64,000 nucleotides of DNA from Lichtheimia corymbifera B2541 (taxonomy: Eukaryota; Mucoromycota; Mucoromycetes; Mucorales; Lichtheimiaceae). Positions 1,846 to 51,100 of this stretch are shown one piece after another. The stretch spans positions 84,043 to 148,042 of the forward strand of contig JNEU01000888.1 of assembly GCA_000697475.1 (NCBI GenBank). The letters run 5' to 3'. Below the pieces are notes generated by a model that ran no database searches, was not told the origin of the DNA, and saw only the letters and a list, made by a program, of their open reading frames with translations. Position numbers and translations under genes: made by a program. Positions within the stretch are counted from its first letter, which is position 1, and the number at the start of each line of letters is the position of its first letter.

Positions 1846-4105
1846 ATGATTATGGGTAGGTTACTGCTATGCTTACTGCTCGTTTGCGACAATGAGCTTA
1901 TATATCCCAACGATAGGCAACTCGTATCTGAAGCCTTTCAACGATATCAGCTACCCAACAACCTAGGCCATGAAGGTGGAGGATGGCCATCCGAAGAAGG
2001 TGTTACTCGACGAATCCAATCTCGTTTCCTTGGCTTATCTTCACTCAAGCTCACTCATTGTACACTACCAAGCATGGCCTTTTATGAGATCACCGAGTCG
2101 GAAATTTCAGTGATTGCATCTCGACAGCAACATCAACAACAACAACGACAACCTGATTTGGGTGAAGAGGATGATAAGGTGTCATTGTCTACAACGAGTG
2201 CTTCATCTCCCGAGTGTGTGGATGCTTTATTATCACTGGCCCAATCGAGTCCGCCGCCGCCTCCGTTAGGAGATGCCATGATCCTGACTGATAATCCATC
2301 ATCATCCACTACCCGTTCCTTACCGCCAAAGAAAAGAAAACGCCGTCGTGTCATCAGTTACAATGTCGTCTTTTGTATTCCATCAACGATAAACGAGGAT
2401 CTTCTCACCCTTCCTAACCCCGATCAAGATTATTTCATATTTCCTCGGGATGCTGTGGTCGAAGCTGTCAATCAAACATCGACACCTTTGGAGGTAAACT
2501 TTTCTATTGAAGATCTATGCGTGTGTGTATATATATACTTATCTCTCCAATAATAGGTCATGTTCTCATATCATCTCCCTCAATGCACTACTGAACCGAC
2601 AACATTGATCCATACTTCTTCCCTGTTGCATTCCATGTGTTCATGCCGATCATCCACCTATCCATCTAAACTGGAGGAATTCGCAACTGTATGTTCAGAT
2701 CACCTTGCGTCCACCACCAACCACAACAGCACTTTTCTACGCTCGCAACGACGTTTCACCGATCCATGCATACAACCCGAAAGTTGTCATGTCCTCAACA
2801 TGCGGATGACCGGTGTATCCAAGGACTTATATGATGCCATGAAACAAGTGGTTTCTAATTTCGAATCTGTATGTCAACGCATGATGGATTTGGTATGTAT
2901 CAAGGGCAACCCAATAGATTGAATGAGTCATTCATTGTGTGTGTATATATAGATACGCTTGCATACCGAAAGGATGAACAATGAAAAGGCGATTGATTTG
3001 AAGCAAGAAGATCAAGATATGACAGAAGAAGAAGCTACGATTACAACCATGTTGACCAAGACTCAAGTACAATCCGAAGAGGAGGAAGAGGTGGATCCAA
3101 TGCTCTATGATAGCACAGCTGCTGTTGCTACTGGAGGCGGTCATTGGAGCAGTGATGAATGGGACAAGGGTCGGTATAAAACATTATTTTGTCGTTTTTT
3201 TCTTTCCCTTATGCTGAACTCTCTATATTATGTCATCAGATTTGGATGATGACCAAGATGACACTGATTATTGCATGACATCACCTCACAGCAAGTCAAC
3301 GATTGCAAGTACAAGTAGTCATTATACAGCAACAGCAGCAGCACCTCCTGCTCAACCACAACCACCCCCGCCACCAACACCTGCTACTACGACTACTACG
3401 ACGACGACAACGAGTAATACAGACACAAAGAAAGGAGGCAAATCAGGGAATGGAAGCAATGGCATGAAAAAGTGTTTGTATTGTGGATCAAAGTCAACGC
3501 CCATGTGGCGTCGTGGGCCCCAGGGTGCAGGTACACTCTGCAATGCGTGCGGCGTCAAATGGAAACACGGCAAGATTCTCTGCGGCAACGATGCACCTAG
3601 TCAATCCAACACGGCTTTATCATCATCATCATCATCGACACAAGCCAAGGAATCACATCCTCGAAGGAATAGTGGGAAAGGAGATAAACGACGACGCAAA
3701 ACTTCTTCAGCTGCAATCAAAAAAGATAAAACCAAAAACAAGGCAGCACAACAAAGGAAACGTGCAAGCATACAACAAAAGATGGAATCAGACGAAGATG
3801 ACATGATGACGGGCGTGCAGTATACCTTTACTTCACCAAGAGACATTGTTCCTGAATCATTCCACCACCCTCGTTATCAACAACAACAACGAATGTGGGA
3901 GCCTAGCAGCAGCGTATCATCTTATTCCCATTCATTTGAAGAATCATCATGCAGTCCGCCTTTGGAATCGTTTTCCTCATCCCCCAACTCTTCCATTCAT
4001 GATCCAATGATGGATAAGAACTCCTCTTCCTCCTCCTCGTCATCATTCCCCTTATCCGATGCTGTTGAAGCCGCTACTGTTTTAACCTTATTGAAACGAA
4101 GCTAG
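1846..4105 (+). CDS. GATA-type zinc-finger transcription factor
   Basis: Predicted nuclear DNA-binding regulator of about 688 residues. Exons 1846-2493, 2557-2892, 2953-3169 and 3240-4105 (TAG). The single GATA finger is C-x2-C-x18-C-x2-C at about residues 479-504 ([12 protein letters not shown] ... [13 protein letters not shown]). It is preceded by an acidic stretch (E/D-rich, exon 3) and a P/T-rich linker, and followed by a basic, nuclear-localisation-like segment ([12 protein letters not shown] ... QQRKRAS) and S-rich tails. The N-terminal third has no fold I recognise. The start is uncertain: 1846 is the first ATG in the coding frame, but the same frame stays open and protein-like upstream to about 1640 without an ATG, so an upstream exon or a non-AUG start is possible. 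The x18 spacing means I cannot assign it to a named fungal GATA subgroup (AreA, SreA, WC-2). Confidence 0.82.
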
Positions 4106-23124: not shown

Positions 23125-24859
23125 GGTGGTGGTGAATGTTAGTAAACAGACACACCTTGTTCAAGCTTCTTATATTTGGGTAAATGGGAACCATCCTCCA
23201 AAACAAGTAAAAGGGCGTATGAAACGCGAGATCTGGATCTTGGTATACAGTGAGGTCACACCACCCCCGTTCAATGGTAATTCGCATGTGTGTCTCAGGG
23301 GCAGATAAGGCCACCTTGGATGCGTTTGACTTTTACTTTAACATCTAGAAGATGATGTTACCCCTATGGTGTCAACTTTTATCGGGATAGTTATCATAAT
23401 CGATCGGCCAAAGACTATTTTGCACTGTAATTGTTTACTAGACGCTGTCTTATGTCTGAACCGGAAATACCATGCAACAATATTAATGTATGATACTTCG
23501 AAGTATATAGCCCCCATATCCTAGGGACTCGTGATGCGCTGCCTGATCTCCTTTCTTCTTCAAGCTTCTTCTTGTAGTCGTCTTCATTGCCGCTAGTAGG
23601 AACCCATCTTTCATTGCTGCAATAGGATGATCAATGAAAGGAGAGTGGGTATCTTCTCTTTCTTTTTTTGCCCTTTCAGAATTCTCAAAGTACACCCAGA
23701 GGAGGTAGTTACCTTTCGCGCGCATTGCAGGTTTGGGTCTCGCCTCCACACCATGTTCCTTGTTTTACAAGAAACCCATAACGTTATCGAGAATACAGTC
23801 ATCCCCCTTTCGCCCCTTTTGTGGCATAAAGTGCCAGAGACTTGGGTTGCTATTTGTGTAGCAATGGTGATGCCCCTGCTATGTAGATCAAAAAATGCAA
23901 CGTTTATAATGGATTCAATGGATATACACACACAAGGCTGATAATCCCCTTCACAGCCTCAATTGACACCGCCCTTCTATCAGCAACTGCTATAAAGAAA
24001 GTCCAGTGCAATGGAAACTCCCATCTCTTTAAAAAAGAACGTGCATCCATGTTTTCTTCTTTGGTATCTTCAAGGATGTGCACATCCCCTTCTCCTTTTT
24101 CTGCATCCCCACACCGAAAACAAAGAAAATATATGGTGCAGCTAAGCCTTGTCTAGGCTGGTGTGGATTACTTTCTACATACCCTGGGTTTGTCTGTGGA
24201 ATTAATGGTATAGTAGGGGTAAATGGACAAGGGGCAAACTTTCTTTCTTGCCATCTCCACAATATCCTTCCAAAAACGAAAGCGTCGTTCATACACACAC
24301 ACCAATTTTTACGTGGATCGTAATAAACAGCTTGCTTTATCATTCTACTTGGATTCGATAACTCGTCACGGCACTCTGAAGGTCAATGCCCATGTAAAGA
24401 ATGGTGCATGATACTAAATTTATCATTGGGTGAGTCGTATTTATGATATGATACAAAAACATCCATAACCCGTGTTGTATTGAGGAACAAGCACCTAGGA
24501 TTGATACATGCCCAAATAAAGTTTCTTGCTGTTGTACATATACCAGCTTGATCTACCGGTAAGCTTTGATTCCTCCTCGCTAGAGTTCTTCCTTCTTTAG
24601 TTATGATCAGCAAAAGATTCTCCTACACTGAATATTTGAGATAGGTAGTGCATACTGAAGTGCCCTTGTTTGGGTGTAGCTCTCAGTGAAATCAGCTCGG
24701 GTCAAGGCAATTGAATCATGGAAATAAATGTCTGGAGCAGGAGCATTGTTCTGATGTTATACAATTGACAACATTGCCGATTGTAAGGAAACTGCTGTTA
24801 GCTCGCAATATATGAACTATATAAGAGTATCATGCATTCATCTCTCCAGTTCTACCCAA
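23125..24859. other. Gene-poor region before the repeat array
   Basis: Short open frames on both strands have no motifs, no signal peptide and no coherent splice structure. I see no gene here. Confidence 0.45.
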
Positions 24860-25101
24860 TCAGCTGTGTTACACGAAGAAGTGTTTCTGCATCTTTGGCT
24901 CTATTAGCGCATAGCTACTTTATAAAACTCACTTCCATATAGCTTCACGTTTAAAACATATATAAAACATAAAGGCAGTCTTATCTCAAAATCTTGCAAT
25001 GAAACGCGAGATCTTCAGTCGAACAAAGTTGCTCGTCATGGTCAAGCGCACCTTGGGTGCAAGTTTCACGATCGTTGTGGCCATTCTCAGATTCACCCAA
25101 T

Positions 25102-25164
25102 GTCACCACCAGCCTCGTCGAAAAAAAATTCGAGGTCGATCAGATCCACTTTGGCTGGTGGTGA
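25102..25164 (+). mobile_element. Mini-element with 13-bp terminal inverted repeats, copy 1
   Basis: Ends are GTCACCACCAGCC (25102-25114) and GGCTGGTGGTGAC (25152-25164). The core contains TCGTCGAAAAAAAATTCGAG. It sits at the centre of a larger palindrome. Confidence 0.65.
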
Positions 25165-26019
25165 CATTGTTGGGTGAAACTGAGATCAGCGAGCTAGATC
25201 GGGAAACTTCTACACAAGGTGCGCTCCACCTCGACGAGCAATATTGTTCGATTGAGGAGCCCACGTTTCATTGTAAAGTTTAGAGATACAGGCACCTTTA
25301 TGTTTTTACATATGCTGTAACCATAATGCTCTATAGAGAGTGGTGTGTGCTCATTGTGAAGTATCATGCAAATGAGCTGTGTTACACAAGCACGCCCCTG
25401 CGCACCTTCCGCTCTATCAGGGTCAAGCGACTACACAATGAACAAACAACAGCACTTGTCATATAGCATCACGCTTTCAACATATGCAAAAACTTAAATG
25501 TGCCTGCATCTAGGATCGGCAAGCTTGATCATGAAACATGATTGACAAGGTGCGCTCCACCACGACGAGCAATATCGTTCTATAAAAGATCCCTTGTTTC
25601 ATTGTAAAGTTTAGAGATAAATGCACTTTCTCGTGTTCACATATGCCGAAAAGCATGGCGCTATATGACAAGTGGTGTTTGTTCATTGTCAAGTAGGTAG
25701 ACCGTGATAGAGCGGAAGATACGCGGGAGAGTGCATGTGTAACACAGCTCATTTGCATAATACTTCTCAATGAACAAACACCACTTGTCATATAGCGCCA
25801 TGCTTTCCAGCATATGTAAAAACGAGAAAGTGCATTTATCTCTAAACTTTACAATGAAACATGGGATCTTCCATAGAACGATATTGCTCGTCGTGGTAGA
25901 GCGCACCTTGTCAATCAAGTTTCACCATCACGCTTGCCGATCCTAGATGCAGGCACATTTACGTTTTTGCATATGTTTAAAATGTGATGCTATATGACAA
26001 GTGGTGCTTGTTCATTGCG

Positions 26020-26612
26020 TAGTATCATGCAAATGAGCTGTGTTGCACAAGCACGCCCCTGCGCATCTTCTGCTCTATCAGGGTCAAGCTACTTGACAAT
26101 GAACAAACACCACTTGTCATATAGCATCATGCTTTCAGTATATGTAAAAACATAAATGTGCCGGTATCTCTAAACTTTACAATGAAACATGGGCTCTTCA
26201 ATCGAAGAAAGTTGCTCGTCGGGGTGTAGCGCACCTTGGGTGCAAGTTTCACGATCAACCTCGCCAATCTCAAATTTACCCAATGTCACCACCAGCCTCG
26301 TCGAAAAAAATTCAAGAGGTCGACCCGATCAACTTTGGCTGGTGGTGACATTCTGTGAATCTGAGATCGGCCACGACGATCGTGAAGCTTCCACCCAAGG
26401 TGCGCTCCGCCTCGACGAGCAACTTTGTTCGATTGAAGACCCCACATTCATTGTAAAGTTTAGAGATACAGGCACCTTTATGTTTTCACATATGCTGTAA
26501 GCGTGATGCCATATGACAAGTGGTGTTTGTTCATTCTGAAGCAGCTTGACTCTGATAAAGCGGAAGATGCAGACGGACTTTGTGCAACACAGCTCATTTG
26601 CATGATGCTTCA
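26020..26612. repeat. Near-complete ~590-bp inverted repeat (hairpin unit)
   Basis: The left arm (about 26020-26297) and right arm (about 26337-26612) are reverse complements over about 270 nt with scattered mismatches. The arms run from CATGCAAATGAGCTGTGTT through the TTTACAATGAAAC block to the central GTCACCACCAGCC. A roughly 40-nt loop separates them. It is the best-preserved palindrome of the array. Confidence 0.85.
26285..26349 (+). mobile_element. Mini-element with 13-bp terminal inverted repeats, copy 2
   Basis: Same ends as copy 1, with a core TCGTCGAAAAAAATTCAAGA then GGTCGACCCGATCAA. It forms the loop of the 26020-26612 hairpin. Confidence 0.65.
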
Positions 26613-26797
26613 CTGAACAAACACCACTCCCCATATAGCATCACGCTTACAGCATATGAAAAAACATAAAGTGCCTGTACCTCTAAACTTTACAATGAAA
26701 CGTGGGCTCTTAAATCGAAGAAAGTTGCTCGTCGAGGTGGAGCGCACCTTGGGTGGAAGTTTCACGATCGTCGTGGCCGATCTCAGATTCAACGAAT

Positions 26798-26862
26798 GTC
26801 ACCACCAGCCAAAGTTGATCGGGTCGACCTCGAATTTTTTTTTCGACGAGGCTGGTGGTGAC
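26798..26862 (-). mobile_element. Mini-element with 13-bp terminal inverted repeats, copy 3 (flipped)
   Basis: Same ends, but the core is reversed: AAAGTTGATCGGGTCGACC then the T-tract and CGACGAGGC. The core orientation is opposite to copies 1, 2 and 4. Confidence 0.65.
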
Positions 26863-27933
26863 ATTGGGTAAGGTGCGCTACACCCCGACGAGCAACTTTC
26901 TTCGATTGAAGAGCCCATGTTTCATTGTAAAGTTTAGAGATACCGGCACATTTATGTTCTTACATATGCTGAAAGCATGATGCTATATGACAAGTGGTCT
27001 TTGTTCATTGTCAAGTAGCTTGACCCTGATAGAGCGAAAGATGCGCAGGGTCGTGCTTATATAACACAGCTCATTTGCATGATACTTCACAATGAACAAA
27101 CACCACTTGCCATATAGCATCACGCTTTCAGCATATGTAAAAACGTAAAAGTGCCTGTACATAGGATCGGCAAGCGTGATGGTGAAACTTGATTGACAAG
27201 GTGCGCTCCACCACAACGAGCAATATTGTTCGATGAAAGAGCTCATGATTCATGGTAAAGTTTAGAGATAAATGCACTTTCTCGTTTCTACATATGCTGA
27301 AAGCGTGATGCTATATGATAAGTGATGTTTGTTCATTGTGAAGGATTATGCAAATGAGCTGTGTTGCACAAGCTCGCCCCTGTGCATCTTCCGCTCTATC
27401 AGGATCTACCTACTTGACAATGAAGAAGCACTACTTGTCATATAGCATCATGCTTTTCAGCATATGTAAAAACGAGAAAGTGCATTTATCTCTAAACTTT
27501 ACGATGAAACATGGGCTCTTTCATAGAACAATATTGCTCGACATGGTCGAGCACACCTTGTCAATCAAGTTTCACGATCAAGCTTGCCAATCCTACGTAC
27601 AGGCACTTTTACGTTTTTACATATGCTGAAAGCGTGATGCTATATGACAAGTGACGTTTGTTCATTGTGAAGTATCATGCAAATGAGCTGTGTTATATAA
27701 GCACGACCCTGCGCATCTTTCGCTCTATCACGATCTACCTACTTGACAATGAACAAAGGTCACTTTTCATATAGCATCATGGCTACAGCATATGTAAAAC
27801 GTAAAGATGCCCATAACTAAAAATTCTACAATGAAACGTGGGGTCTTCAATCGAACAAAGTTGCGCGGCAGGGTGAAGCGCACCCTGTGTGCAAGTTTCA
27901 CGATCCAGCTCGCCGATCTCAGATTCACCCAAT

Positions 27934-28001
27934 GTCACCACCAGCCTCGTTGAAAAAAAATTCAAGAGGTCGACCCACGATCCACTTTGGCTGGTGGTGA
28001 C
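27934..28001 (+). mobile_element. Mini-element with 13-bp terminal inverted repeats, copy 4
   Basis: Same ends. The core starts TCGTTGAAAAAAAATTC and has a slightly longer right part (GGTCGACCCACGATCC). Confidence 0.65.
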
Positions 28002-28339
28002 ACAGCGAAATCTAGGATCGTCGAGCCTGATCGTGAAACTTGCACCCAAGGTGCGCTTGACCCCGACGAGCAATATTGTTCGATTGAAGTCCCCATATTT
28101 CATGTAAGATTTTTAGTTATGGGCATCTTTGTGCTTTTACTATGCTGTACGCGTAACGCTATATGTAAAGTGATCTCGGTTCATTGTCAAGCAGCTGGAG
28201 CCTAATAGAGCCAAAGATGCAGAGGGACGTGTTTGTGTAATACAGCTCATTTGCATGATACTTCACAATGAACAAACACCATTCTCCATATAGCATCACG
28301 CTTACAGCATATGTAAAAACATAAAGGTTCCTGTTTCTA

Positions 28340-28970
28340 CAAGTTGCCATGATGAAGTGTGGGGTCTTTATGAGAACAAAGTTGATCAGGATGGCCGAGA
28401 GGACCTCTGACCAAGTTTCATATTCGAGATCACCAATATCGGCGGGCGCGGCCCGTACATCTTAACTATGTTTCCCTCCGTACATCCAGGCGCCGCCAAC
28501 CAAAACTTCATAATGAAGTGTGGCATCTCTATGAGAACGAAATTGCTCGCCGTGATCGGAAGTACCTTGCATGAAAGTTTCAGGTTCGAGGTAGCCAATC
28601 TCAGGCTCAGGGAGCGTCCAACCTACTTTTGCCCTACATTTGGGCCGCCCCGCATTCAAAACATTTATAATGAAGCCTGCGTTTTTTAAATGAATGTGGT
28701 TGATCAGCATGCCCCAGCGAACCTTCTGACCAAATTTCAGGTTCGAAATGGGCAATCCCAAGTTAATACATACTACTTCGATAAATCATAAATCCGGCGC
28801 GTACCCGATTTCCGACCATCCATAGTAAACCCCACATTATACCCTCCCATTCAAAATTTTCAAATGAAGCATGGGTTCTTTATTAATACAAAGTTGATCA
28901 GCATGACCAAGAGCATCTTGTGTGAAAGTTTCAGGTTTGAGAGAGGCAATCACGGTCATGGATTAATTTA
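28340..28970 (+). repeat. Four divergent direct repeats (~110 nt each)
   Basis: Units start with ATGAAG at about 28352, 28513, 28670 and 28864. Each continues with a G/T-rich stretch, then AA-AAAGTTGATCAGCATG-like sequence and AAGTTTCAGGTTCGAG-like sequence. They are related to the arm of the preceding palindromes (ATGAAAC ... AAGTTGCTCGTC ... AAGTTTCACGATC) but all point the same way and are more diverged. Confidence 0.7.
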
Positions 28971-30255
28971 TAGTGTGCATGAATCTGTCGGACTCAGTGT
29001 CTGACCTATTTAGTTTCCACTTCTTCCACTATCAACTACAACTACAACCTGCGAACAATTGTCCTGCTTCAACCCATCATGTCAATCCTACAACTGCCTT
29101 GATCCTATTTGTCTTTGACTGAATGGCAAGTTCATGGCGTGTGCACCCCACGACAACACCCGCAATTCTTGGCACTCCACTTTCTCTTGCACACTCCTCT
29201 GCCACGACCAACGTAACAGCAGCTGCCATCAGCAATGTCTTCAACTCCATTGTCTCAAGTTACTTGCAGCAGCTTGTCTTTGGGCCTTTTCACTTGGACA
29301 GCAGATAGTCATTATATAGAAACAGCTTTATTTTGCGTGTAGCAACTTGCTTGAATACATACGATTTGCCTAAGGAAATGGATATGGATATTGCTTTGGT
29401 ATATGGGATGGGAGGAATTGGATATATCCAACGCGTGGAAAGAGGGCCTTGTTTTTATGCATTCATTGTCAACTTGCTTGGGCATTATGCGTGCTACTAT
29501 CATCCTAAACCATGCATGCATGCATGTAATTACCGTCTTTTACATAAGCTATTCCATGGAAGCCACTGTCATCACCCTTCATGCAACCTGTGAACCAAGT
29601 ACAATCATCATCAACCTACTGCATACTTTGACATGGTGTGGTTATCATGCGATACCACGAATCAAGAGCCACTTCACATTCATCTTGGCACAGTGCACCC
29701 GGAAGGATAGAAACCTTCCAAATCGATGCATTTCCCTTATTGGAACATTTCATTATACATCTCTCAATCTACCTCTTGTGAATAGTTTGGATCAAAAGGC
29801 TACACTGGCAAATAAAGCAATACGTTGCTCACCAACCAGTTCTCGGTTTCTACTGTGTAAGGCCTTCCTTTTTCCTGAACAGGACCTCATTGTATGACAG
29901 TACGATTCATGGTATGGGAAATGTAGGGCTGTAGAAGGATATCCACATATGAATGCTATGATAAAGGGCAAAGAGAGGAAAAGAGGAGTCTTCCTGATGG
30001 ATTCATTGTGTCTTGAACAAAGGCTGTATTCGGTATATAATGTATCCCCTTTTTCGTTCTGTGATTTCGATCACTTTTCATGTTGAAGATTAATATCGTA
30101 CGTTGTGTCTTCATCGGTTTTATTTGTCATAATACCATATTGCTATTAGTAAGCCACTTGTTCACGGTCATTAAAGAGATGTGACGCCATCTTTAGGCAG
30201 GACTCAGCAGTTACAATAGTCTATATAGAAGCGAAACGTAGCAACAGCGAACAAC
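28971..30255. other. Region after repeats, no supported gene
   Basis: A 61-codon frame (29123-29308) and a 168-codon frame without an ATG at its start (29391-29897) show no domain, leader or splice pattern that I can support. The rest is featureless. Confidence 0.4.
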
Positions 30256-42510: not shown

Positions 42511-43481
42511 GGGGCCCCTAATGACACCCAATAGGTCTTATAGTTATTTCGCTGTAGAGAGATTATATCATTTTCTTTTGGTTTGATAAAAAAAAAAGTA
42601 TAGAGGAGTGAGGATGCTGTGTAATCCGCATTGAGTTGCCAAGTAAAACTTGGTCTCGCGTATTGCACTTCATAACAAAACACCAGGGGGGAAGATTTTC
42701 AATAACCCACCAATCCCATATCCTAAAGAGAATCCGAAGACGCTCTCATCGTTGGCATAAGGAAGAGCAGGCCATGGTTGTCTGGTACCCCTACCACACC
42801 CTTTCGAGTGCTGCCTACCAAAAGCATTGTCAGGCTATTCGCGGACTTTCCCACGGGCGATAAAGAAGAGTAGAGAATACTACAAAAGCAGCATCTCACC
42901 GTATGTTGACCCGTAAACGCAAGCAAGCAACCTCACTCCAAGAGAAAAGAAAAAAAATTTTGCGCGCCGTTGAATGCTGAGCTTTTATACCTTATTCAAA
43001 AGGCCGTCACCCGGTATAACCAATAACAGTCCTTGGTTTTTGTCAGCCAGCTGCAAACCATCGGGAAAACAATACCCACTTTTTTTTTCCAGATACAGCA
43101 AAAGCAAGGATTGGTTCCTGAACGTCCCAACATGCTTTCAAAAGCCTTGATGTAAGACAACACATTGCACCGTATCGTTGTGTCTTTTTATGACAAGGAT
43201 TGATGATTGATGTGTATAAAACAACAAACATGCAGAATGTGAGTGTGTGTGTAACATTTTTCCTTTGACAGATTTATACGATTCATCTGCCGACGACGAC
43301 ACCCAAAGGTGTCCCATTTTCAGCTCACCCAATTTACGTCCGAGAGACCGGAAAACATGGCCGAACTACTGATTATCATCTAACACAATGAGAGCGGAGC
43401 GATCATTCATCTCCACACGCACACTCAAAAAGGATTCGGATATGGTAAAAAAAGAAAAACTCTACTTCTTTTCCACATATC
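42041..43481. other. Intergenic region between divergent genes with (CAA)n microsatellite
   Basis: A trinucleotide run (ACA/CAA)n spans about 42474-42511. A 75-codon frame near 42636-42863 has no ATG at its beginning and no motif. Nothing else is supported. Confidence 0.5.
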
Positions 43482-48139: not shown

Positions 48140-51100
48140 TTATAAGCCAATTTCATCGAATAAATCATCGACTTTATCTCGTTCATCATCATTGCTATAG
48201 ACCATAATGGTGTCCTTTTCCTTGTCTGAAGGCTTGTTACTACTGTGCCTGGTGGCAGATATATCCACTGACATTTCGTCGCTGAGGCTGCTGCTGGTTC
48301 GGGTGGTAATAGGTATATCCAACGACATGCTGTTGGTGTTGTTGTAGCTCTTGCTATCACCCTGATTTTGAAATGGCGAACGAGTATCATTTTCATCATC
48401 CATCATGAGATCTAAACCATCCTGTGTGGCATCACTATCGTCGTCGTTGTCAACCATTTGGTCATTCCTCAAAGGTGACTTGTTGAACATGATGATGGGC
48501 GTGGAGGAATGAGAAGGAGGAGGTTCAAGAGATGATATTTGTGGTGGTGGTGATCGTTCTGGTACAGGCGTTTTATCCACTGCTGGCATTCCAAGGCCGA
48601 ATTCTGCATCCATCAAATCTACCACTGATTTCTTGGGTCTGGTTTCTGTTGCTGCTACTACATCGCTGTCATTGTCTTCTTTTTCGCTCGTGTCACTGGT
48701 CGACATGGCAACATCCTGTTTATCCACTTTGGCTCTTCTCGATGGTGTTTTTCGCCTGGTTGTTGTTATGGTTGTTGTTGGCATATCCATGCTGGACGAC
48801 GTATCAATACCAAACTCATCATCCATGACATCCACCGTTGTCTTCTTTTTCCTTCCTGTGGTCCTCGCTGTTGTTTTCGGTAGTTCCGCGATAGACGACG
48901 TATCAACACCAAACTCATCATCCATAGCATCCACTGTCGCTTTCTTTTTTCTTCTCGTGGTCCTCGCTGTTGTTTTTGGTATATCAGCGATAGATGATGC
49001 ATCAACAGCAAATTCATCATCCATAGCATCCTCTGTCGTCTTCTTTTTTCTTCGTGTCGTCGTTGCTCTTTTGGGCGCTGTACTGGTGCTGGTGGATACA
49101 CTGTCATCTTCATCCATTTTTTTCTTTTGTCGTGCTTTGGTAGTAGTCGTGGTTTTCTTTGGCTTCTTTTTGTCGTCATCCTCAGTATTCGCTTTTCGTC
49201 GTGCTTTTGTCTTTGGTTGTTCATCCAAGGCATCTGACCACGGGAGTGATCGTCGTCGTCGAGGTGGCCTTGAGGATGAAGAGGATGGCTGAGTCGTGAT
49301 ACTTGTCGATGATGCCGGTGCTGGTGCTGGTGTAGCTGCTATAACATCTGGCTGTTTCTCAGGTACAGTGGCGTCCTTGGATATTGTCGCCTTGTCCTTA
49401 GTAGTAGGTTTACTGGTATCAGTTGTTGTAGATGGTGGTGGTGGTGGTCTTCTGCTAGGCGCATAATCGAAATCATCGCCGTTGATCATGAACATCTTTA
49501 GTGTGGCGACACAGTGCTTGCATTTTCCTCCCTTGCCAACGGGACATGAACACAATCCACCCGATATAACTAAGTCTCTGTTAGCCAATGTATCCCTTTT
49601 CATCCTATAAACATGTACATACCAATATTGCCACCACTCGGTTTTTCCAACGTCATATGCACATTGTATGGTTCAGCTGCTGTTCCCTGTGCCTTGGCAA
49701 ATAATGTGATCTTCTCTTCGTTGCCAGAAAACTCAGTTTGATCAAGAGAGTCAAGGATAGATCCACCACGCTTGTAGGCACCTTGGTTGTCGATGTAATT
49801 CACAATCATAGCATCTTTGAGCGCATATGAAAACGACTCCATCAAATCCATTGGATCACCATGATACGGTTCTTGGATCTCTTCGTGCTCTGGCTCTTTT
49901 GGTGATGATAATGGAGAAGTGGTGGTGTCCTCGTCGCCATTTTGGATCGTTTCTTTCATGATGGTATCATTCTCTATAGGATTCCCAGCAGGAATAGTTG
50001 CCTCCATGCATGATTTCCACTTTTCATAGGTTGACGCATTCTGGATAATCCAAATGTTAATCAGCCAGCACGATTGCAAATACTTTTCTTCTTTTACTTA
50101 CCGATGCCGATACACTATGCGTCAATCTCTCTGTAAAATGCTCCGTCGTGGTAAGATCCCCCTTGTTCAAACGCTCCACTAATGGCTCCAGGGAGTCCGA
50201 CTTTATCTCTGGAGGTAAATCCCTGGGTTCATGTTAGCACAAATTTGATTAAATGGCAACACCGTACAATACTTACAGCAAGGATGGGGATTTTAGAGAC
50301 AACGTATCACCTTTGCCACGTGCTTTATCGACTTTCATCATAATGGAACTACCATCAACCATATTAGATAGCTGTAGATCAACGCACTGTTACTACTTAC
50401 AAGTCATCTTTCCACCGAGAGCGGTTCTTGGATGTCGTCTCATTCAGATATACATTTTGGATACTTGATAAATAAGCCTGATCTTCCATCTTGCGAGCTT
50501 CTTGACGAGAGAAATGCAAACAAAGAGAGCGGGACAAATCCAGATGATGACGATGCTGCATGCTATTATATAACGTCAGATAACCTACTTGAGTGTATCA
50601 TCACCATTGTCCACTTGCCATGTAATTTGATCAATGAGCTCTTCAGGATGCGCGCTCCAGTAATCGCGAAAATACATGTATATAGGACATGATGCATTCA
50701 TCTCTTGTAATCGCTCATAGGTTGCTTTTCGAAGCCTTGTCAATAATCCCTCCTGTTTGCTAGTAGTCGACTTTGAATGAGATCACATGATCATCATGTA
50801 GTAGCAGGTCCAATGCACGTGATACCTTTTGCTTGGTTGATTCAAGACCGCTTGACCAAAGAGAAGCTTCTCATCGACAAAGAAAACCAGAGTACTACAA
50901 AGAACCATCAATATGCAACTCATCCAGGTTTTCCAACCGAAGAATAACTCACCCAGCTCTCGATAATGATGTCATTGCATCCGACCAACCTTGGATAGCC
51001 GCTTTTGCATCGGTTGTCAATACCATGCCATGTTCTACTGAGGGTGTTTGGTCGCACAAGGACAAGGTGATGTTCACAAAGAGCGCCTATGCTTTTTTAT

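What the first reader, a model, noticed from the sequence alone, without database searches (positions are those of the whole stretch)
24860..28330. 3.5-kb array of alternately inverted repeats able to fold into long hairpins
At least three sequence blocks recur about 8-12 times each in both orientations but fixed internal order, making palindromes joined end to end. I can find no coding capacity. Such a layout could be a family of non-autonomous foldback elements, a satellite generated by palindrome amplification, or a source of long hairpin RNA feeding the RNAi machinery known in Mucorales. Neither the element family nor the role is known to me.
Basis: partly seen in the sequence, partly recalled or inferred. 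Interest (0 to 1): 0.8.

Follow-up and report, generated by a model that had tools for sequence, protein, structure and literature searches.

The report
Dispersed foldback-like hairpin-array repeat family
The window holds one of many copies of a non-coding repeat in a bread-mould relative, built from palindromes set end to end in mirror-image order; it is most likely a family of 'foldback' jumping DNA rather than a gene, with an unusually regular layout.

Summary
The array is real and larger than reported: 24858-28387 is a chain of eight palindromes inside a repeat of about 24640-30070. Arms A alternate in strand (367 of 368 neighbours in 40 loci), with centres S or C and 63-nt spacers B. The family is dispersed over the 35-Mb assembly: 724 sites of its outer R1 word, 602 of B, 896 of the C stem, 271 of S, none for reversed controls. 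All 136 classifiable neighbouring hairpin pairs fit one mirror grammar, C - S(-) | S(+) - C. No coding signal was found. Arms are scarcely more alike within a hairpin (84-86%) than between loci (83%), which speaks against selection for pairing RNA. Outward lie about four ~160-bp direct repeats and an R domain, in some loci inverted at both ends, as in foldback transposons. No convincing target-site duplication or exact terminus was found and no transposase was sought genome-wide, so membership is unproven. Best reading: a non-autonomous foldback-like family whose interior grew by palindrome duplication. An RNAi role is neither shown nor excluded.

The parts
24640..24857 (+). L module: right arm and loop of a palindrome that is whole (L- L+) in L003, L014, L017, L039, L048, L050, L051; only half is present in the window; the left limit is approximate
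24858..28387 (.). hairpin array: alternating A+/A- arms with S or C centres and B spacers
24936..25345 (.). hairpin 1, C type
25454..25683 (-). hairpin 2, S type, minus orientation
25694..25756 (-). B spacer at the first dyad centre; arms 25450-25695 and 25761-26006 are 92% complementary
25773..26012 (+). hairpin 3, S type, plus orientation
26102..26531 (.). hairpin 4, C type; the RNA fold of 26092-26571 has z = -33
26616..27005 (.). hairpin 5, C type
27095..27333 (-). hairpin 6, S type, minus orientation (second dyad; about 1,651 bp after hairpin 2)
27350..27412 (+). B spacer at the second dyad centre
27423..27652 (+). hairpin 7, S type, plus orientation
27762..28171 (.). hairpin 8, C type
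28271..28387 (+). terminal A arm that runs into the r block
28352..28942 (+). r block: four direct repeats, start-to-start 157-194 bp, overlapping the inner half of A; outward of the array in the other loci where it adjoins one
29020..29444 (+). R1-R3 domain, no coding signal; the R1 word has 724 sites in the assembly; one of six TATA-like words lies within 140 nt upstream in 19 of 32 copies
29888..30070 (+). Z module, the outer end shared with L040, L045, L050, L051

Best explanation
The array is the inner part of one copy of a non-coding, dispersed, foldback-like repeat family. Shown here: copies lie on many contigs, share the modules L, A, B, S, C, r, R and X or Z in recurring order, give no coding signal, and follow a mirror-symmetric hairpin grammar. 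Inferred: copies were spread by transposition in trans (source of the enzyme unknown); the r block and R domain act as long inverted outer arms in complete copies (L013 is the best example); and the interior grew or shrank by palindrome-driven exchange or template switching, which adds S units of about 328 bp or whole C-S-S-C blocks of about 1.65 kb and leaves the loops of C in either orientation. The window copy has lost or never had one outer arm: it ends in half of an L palindrome on the left and in r-R-Z on the right. It probably has no cellular function.
For: Dispersal: 484 matches of a 613-bp probe with only 40 of 705 candidates scored; 724 R1, 602 B, 896 C-stem and 271 S sites, 0 in reversed-pattern controls. 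Grammar in 40 loci: 367 of 368 neighbouring A pairs alternate; C to S- 32, S- to S- 13, S- to S+ 37, S+ to S+ 11, S+ to C 27, C to C 16; no C to S+, S- to C or S+ to S-; 8 further pairs with an unclassified centre were set aside. A check that does not depend on how the loci were chosen: among the 100 S sites printed of 271, 41 neighbours within 1 kb are 11 --, 16 -+, 14 ++ and 0 +-. Inverted outer arms: r outward at both ends in 6 of 44 array chains, one of them (L020) doubtful; in L013 the two r blocks are 96.6% identical, the highest of 595 pairs. No coding signal. Copies with unlike arms (L012 76%, L034 79%, L049 81%), a kind described for Galileo. Local growth: the 1,650-1,652-bp spacing of direct repeats in the window.
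Against: No shared word of 8 bp or more was found round the window copy or L051. L050 does have a shared 12-base word near its two ends (0.008 expected), but one copy lies inside its third L arm and the other just outside Z, so it may or may not be a duplication. Outer limits are ragged. No transposase was noticed in the ORFs listed for L031-L049 (read by eye); the genome was not searched for one. Many arrays do not have two inverted R arms: some carry X-R5 in direct order (L018, L035, L036, L038, L052, L053), others end in L, the window copy among them.
Confidence: 0.6

Rival explanations
1. Satellite-like arrays made by palindrome amplification and seeded by recombination, without a transposable element of their own.
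For: S hairpins of one dyad are more alike within a locus (92.1%) than between loci (89.0%), and the own partner is the best match in 16 of 37 dyads; runs of S units and the 1,651-bp repeat show local growth.
Against: The same outer modules (r, R, X or Z, L) accompany arrays at distant places, and the R1 word has 724 sites; the arrays are short (0.4-3.5 kb in 44 chains, some of them cut by a locus or contig end).
Confidence: 0.17
2. Source of long hairpin RNA that feeds Dicer and silences relatives or other targets.
For: Extreme foldback potential; RdRP and Piwi domains are encoded in the genome; the word TATTTAA lies 68-76 nt upstream of the R1 match in 7 of 32 copies, and one of six TATA-like words within 140 nt in 19 of 32, against 0.5% and 6% of random windows (the copies are related, not independent).
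Against: Arms of single hairpins are 84-86% alike against 83% between loci, so pairing has hardly been kept by selection. The TATA-like words are on the strand that reads outward, away from the hairpins. No miRNA family reaches its threshold. No RNA data.
Confidence: 0.12
3. A derivative of a retroelement: the r-R-X block is a long terminal repeat or a unit that recurs in direct order about every 2.9 kb, with the hairpins as its non-coding inside.
For: Direct order r-R-X-array or r-R-X-array-r-R in L035, L036, L038, L052, L053; R1 sites about 2.8-3.5 kb apart on one strand on C222, C257 and C308; TATA-like words upstream of R1; two same-strand r blocks in L034 are 90.7% alike.
Against: The best-matched r blocks within a locus (L013, 96.6%) are inverted, not direct; the two direct R units within L052 and L053 are only about 74% alike, the r blocks of L038 73.7%.
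Confidence: 0.08
4. Assembly artefact (collapsed or folded-back contigs).
For: 18 of 38 array places with known contig length lie within 3 kb of a contig end, against 7% expected; the outer arms of L049 are 98-99% identical over the last 600 bases and run to the contig start.
Against: The window array lies inside a contig with unlike flanks; most of its arms differ by 8% or more, which a folded read would not give; the same grammar recurs at dozens of places.
Confidence: 0.03

Closest known systems
Tetris, foldback element of Drosophila virilis (PMC4079207; abstract, passages and section 10 seen)
   Same: Non-coding; long inverted arms with an outer flanking domain and a run of ~220-bp tandem repeats (here R and about four ~160-bp r repeats); middle part of variable make-up; its repeats also form longer arrays.
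   Different: In the parts seen, no interior made of a chain of palindromes with a mirror grammar is described; Tetris has 8-10-bp target-site duplications, not established here.
Galileo, P-superfamily foldback-like element of Drosophila (PMC3573991, PMC4168063; passages seen)
   Same: Very variable long inverted arms, tandem subrepeats, internal short inverted repeats in some groups, inner segments recruited into the arms in inverted order, chimeric copies with unlike arms.
   Different: Has copies with a transposase-coding segment and 7-8-bp duplications; no alternating chain of long hairpins is described in the passages seen.
Tm1, Mutator/Foldback family of root-knot nematodes (PMC3169594; passages seen)
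   Same: Composite inverted arms with internal repeats; mostly non-coding copies.
   Different: 13-15-bp subrepeats, defined terminal motifs, mostly 9-bp duplications; a transposase-coding member is known.
Large non-coding LTR-retrotransposon derivatives (LARD/TRIM type; recalled, apart from a listing and abstract start on bivalve TRIMs)
   Same: Non-coding inside; direct repeats at both sides in some loci here.
   Different: No near-identical direct pair round an array was seen; the best pair of blocks within a locus is inverted.

Membership tests
Foldback transposon | Long inverted terminal arms | tested here: inconclusive
   Outward r blocks at both ends in 6 of 44 chains, one doubtful; L013 96.6% alike, L012, L034 and L049 only 76-81%; the window copy has L on one side and r-R-Z on the other
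Foldback transposon | Arms contain tandem subrepeats | tested here: met
   Mostly four r repeats of about 160 bp per block, five or six in L036, L038, L053
Foldback transposon | Dispersed, multicopy | tested here: met
Foldback transposon | Target-site duplication (8-10 bp in Tetris and Tm1) | tested here: inconclusive
   None of 8 bp or more at the window or L051; one 12-base word at L050 of unclear standing; exact ends unknown; only three copies looked at
Foldback transposon | A related copy encodes a transposase | not tested
   No search of the genome for transposase families was made; ORFs listed for L031-L049 were read by eye and one of them scanned with Pfam
Satellite DNA | Long uniform head-to-tail arrays | tested here: not met
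   Arrays of 0.4-3.5 kb with alternating orientation; some are cut by a locus or contig end
Hairpin-RNA (siRNA) locus | Arms kept complementary by selection | tested here: not met
   84-86% within hairpins, 83% between loci
Hairpin-RNA (siRNA) locus | Dicer-size small RNAs from the hairpins | not testable with these tools
   No RNA data
LTR-retrotransposon derivative | Near-identical direct terminal repeats | tested here: inconclusive
   Direct R units within L052 and L053 about 74% alike; r blocks of L038 73.7%, same-strand r blocks of L034 90.7%

The most novel reading that the evidence does not exclude
The strict mirror grammar (C - S-minus | S-plus - C, no exception in 136 classified pairs), with loops of C in either orientation, marks an element that copies itself through hairpin-ended linear DNA, as in rolling-hairpin replication: each palindrome centre would be a former hairpin end, the half L palindrome a broken end, and the either-way loops the flip and flop forms. 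That would be a kind of eukaryotic mobile DNA that I do not know to be described (recalled; no search was made for it).
Probability: 0.1. Interest if true: 0.8.

Novelty: new variant of a known kind. Interest (0 to 1): 0.5.

Why it matters
If the reading holds, a Mucorales genome carries a large non-coding repeat family whose palindromes are likely hot spots for rearrangement and break assemblies (18 of 38 sampled places lie at contig ends). It would be a tractable case for asking how long palindromes arise, multiply and survive in a eukaryote, and whether a fungus with RNAi genes processes such hairpins.

Tried and rejected

Rows dropped: 12 of the 30 first loci (L001, L004, L005, L007-L010, L016, L022, L026, L028, L029) because they overlap the window or loci among L037-L046; the others plus the window and L031-L051 make the 40 loci. 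L052 and L053 came later and enter only. In one search a centre with any C piece was counted as C. The 40 loci were mostly chosen by likeness to window 25448-26060, which itself holds an S- B S+ dyad, so the presence of a dyad is partly selected; one search is the check that does not depend on this. In one search the 38 places are those of the 40 distinct best places whose contig length was known to me (C414 and C367 left out).

Full report
What is there. The window is G000:C251:84043-148042 of a 34,979,012-base, 432-contig assembly. Among hits that carry a source's name, the best for one window gene is from Lichtheimia corymbifera at 60% identity over 88% of the query, with Phascolomyces, Benjaminiella, Rhizopus and Mucor lower; unnamed assembly proteins reach 93%. 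A Mucorales fungus near Lichtheimia is likely; the species is not known.

The array (24858-28387) consists of an arm A (about 118 bp, or a short form of about 67 bp on one side of S) in alternation of strand, with a centre of type S or C between A+ and A-, and a 63-nt spacer B between A- and the next A+. The order in the window is L, C, S-, S+, C, C, S-, S+, C, A, four r, R1-R3, Z. The two C-S-S-C halves look like a direct duplication, with repeat spacings of 1,650-1,652 bp; 613 bp are about 85% alike in a gapped alignment. A stretch with one C hairpin folds with z = -33 against 100 shuffles; 1,200 nt from 24858 fold at -672 kcal/mol, without a shuffle control.

It is one of many. A 613-bp probe gave 484 matches although only 40 of 705 candidate places were scored. 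Word counts over the whole assembly with up to three mismatches gave 724 (R1), 602 (B), 896 (C stem; up to two per C hairpin) and 271 (S), all with 0 for the reversed words. In the 40 parsed loci the words hit 27 times for 32 R1 modules, 121 for 207 B and 79 for 118 S, so the true numbers are probably higher; the loci are chosen for likeness, so the correction is only rough.

Grammar. In 40 loci 367 of 368 neighbouring A modules alternate. Of 136 neighbouring hairpin pairs with clear types, all fit C...C S-...S- | S+...S+ C...C; C to S+, S- to C and S+ to S- never occur; 8 pairs with an unclear centre were set aside, and any centre with a C piece was counted as C. B follows the same polarity in 81 of 83 pairs off the centres, and is found both ways at the S-|S+ centre (24 and 13) and between C hairpins (7 and 9), where the reading direction is arbitrary. 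C loops occur both ways on either side of the dyad (left 9 plus and 15 minus, right 14 plus and 10 minus, 3 unclear; only loops that a simple expression could find, in loci with one dyad). Because the loci were picked mostly with a probe that contains a dyad, I checked the 100 S sites printed of 271: among 41 neighbours within 1 kb, 11 are --, 16 -+, 14 ++ and none +-.

Surroundings. Where an array end adjoins an r block, the r repeats point outward; other ends run into X-R5 of a neighbouring unit in direct order, or into an L palindrome, or into nothing recognised, or are cut. Six of 44 chains have outward r blocks at both ends, L020 among them being doubtful. In L013 these two blocks are 96.6% identical, the best of 595 pairs (mean 82.6%); in L042 93.9%; in L012, L034 and L049 only 76-81%, i.e. 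arms of unlike origin. The L palindrome is whole at some loci and cut at the window.

Coding and RNA. Substitutions do not fall into one phase, and most indels are not multiples of three, in R1-3, R4-5, r, array, C hairpin and Z; the counts, with the modest unevenness in R4-5 and the C hairpin, are in Tried and rejected. The word TATTTAA lies 68-76 nt upstream of the R1 match in 7 of 32 copies, and one of six TATA-like words within 140 nt in 19 of 32, against 0.5% and 6% in random windows; the copies are related and not independent. No Rfam family reaches its threshold in the array; two chance-level matches lie below.

Evolution of the arms. A arms are 85.8% alike within C hairpins (n = 78), 84.0% within S hairpins (106), 84.8% across B (181), 83.3% elsewhere in the same array (1,723) and 83.3% between loci (3,844). 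So single arms drift apart nearly freely. The S- and S+ hairpins of one dyad are more alike (92.1%, 37 dyads) than between loci (89.0%), and the partner is the best match in 16 of 37: partial local homogenisation or recent origin at some loci, not at others.

Reading. The best explanation is a foldback-like, non-coding element family. What is shown is dispersal, recurring module order, mirror grammar and lack of a coding signal. What is inferred is transposition, the identity of the ends and the growth by palindrome exchange. The closest described element that I found is Tetris of D. virilis, whose arms hold an outer domain, ~220-bp tandem repeats and an inner domain; Galileo shares chimeric copies, elastic arms and, in some groups, short internal inverted repeats; Tm1 shares composite arms. 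In the parts of these papers that I saw, no interior made of alternately inverted palindromes with a mirror grammar is described; hence 'new variant of a known kind'. Since no convincing duplication or exact end was found and no transposase was sought genome-wide, I do not file it as a proven foldback transposon.

Against and open. 18 of 38 sampled places lie within 3 kb of a contig end, where 7% would be expected, so array lengths there are lower limits. L049's outer arms are 99% identical over the first 300 bases of the contig, falling to 80% further in, which may be a folded-back contig or a recent duplication. L050 has a 12-base word in common near its two ends, more than chance (0.008 expected), but one copy lies inside an L arm, and the window and L051 show nothing of the kind. 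The hairpin-RNA reading has the machinery for it (RdRP, Piwi) but no support from arm conservation. The direct r-R-X-array order at some loci is not explained by a simple two-armed foldback element and may reflect tandem insertion or recombination.

Noticed in passing
window 42609-42935 (-): Nuclear RNase P RNA gene, 94.1 bits, full-length model match.
   Followed up: no
L031:6070-7182 (+): A 371-codon open frame with a CCHC zinc knuckle lies between two parts of a C hairpin: a nested retroelement-like insertion.
   Followed up: partly
L049:1-5708: The whole stretch matches itself inverted (84%); its outer 600 bases are 98-99% alike and run to the contig start: recent duplication or a folded-back contig.
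   Followed up: partly
L050:222-233 and 3408-3419: A 12-base word is shared near both ends of this copy (0.008 expected); one copy lies inside the third L arm, so its standing as a duplication is unclear.
   Followed up: partly
L045:2279-2939: A low-complexity tandem repeat, open in all three plus frames, sits in a 1.35-kb gap between the r block and R1.
   Followed up: no
window 48795-49061: 99-bp tandem repeat within a long open frame on the minus strand (48140-49672), so probably a repeat in a protein.
   Followed up: no
genome: C337, C333, C425 (two), C96; C59, C169, C248: Five places with RdRP matches and three with Piwi matches; some exon matches contain stop codons, which may be introns.
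   Followed up: no
array places at contig ends: 18 of 38 sampled arrays lie within 3 kb of a contig end against 7% expected: the family seems to break this assembly.
   Followed up: yes
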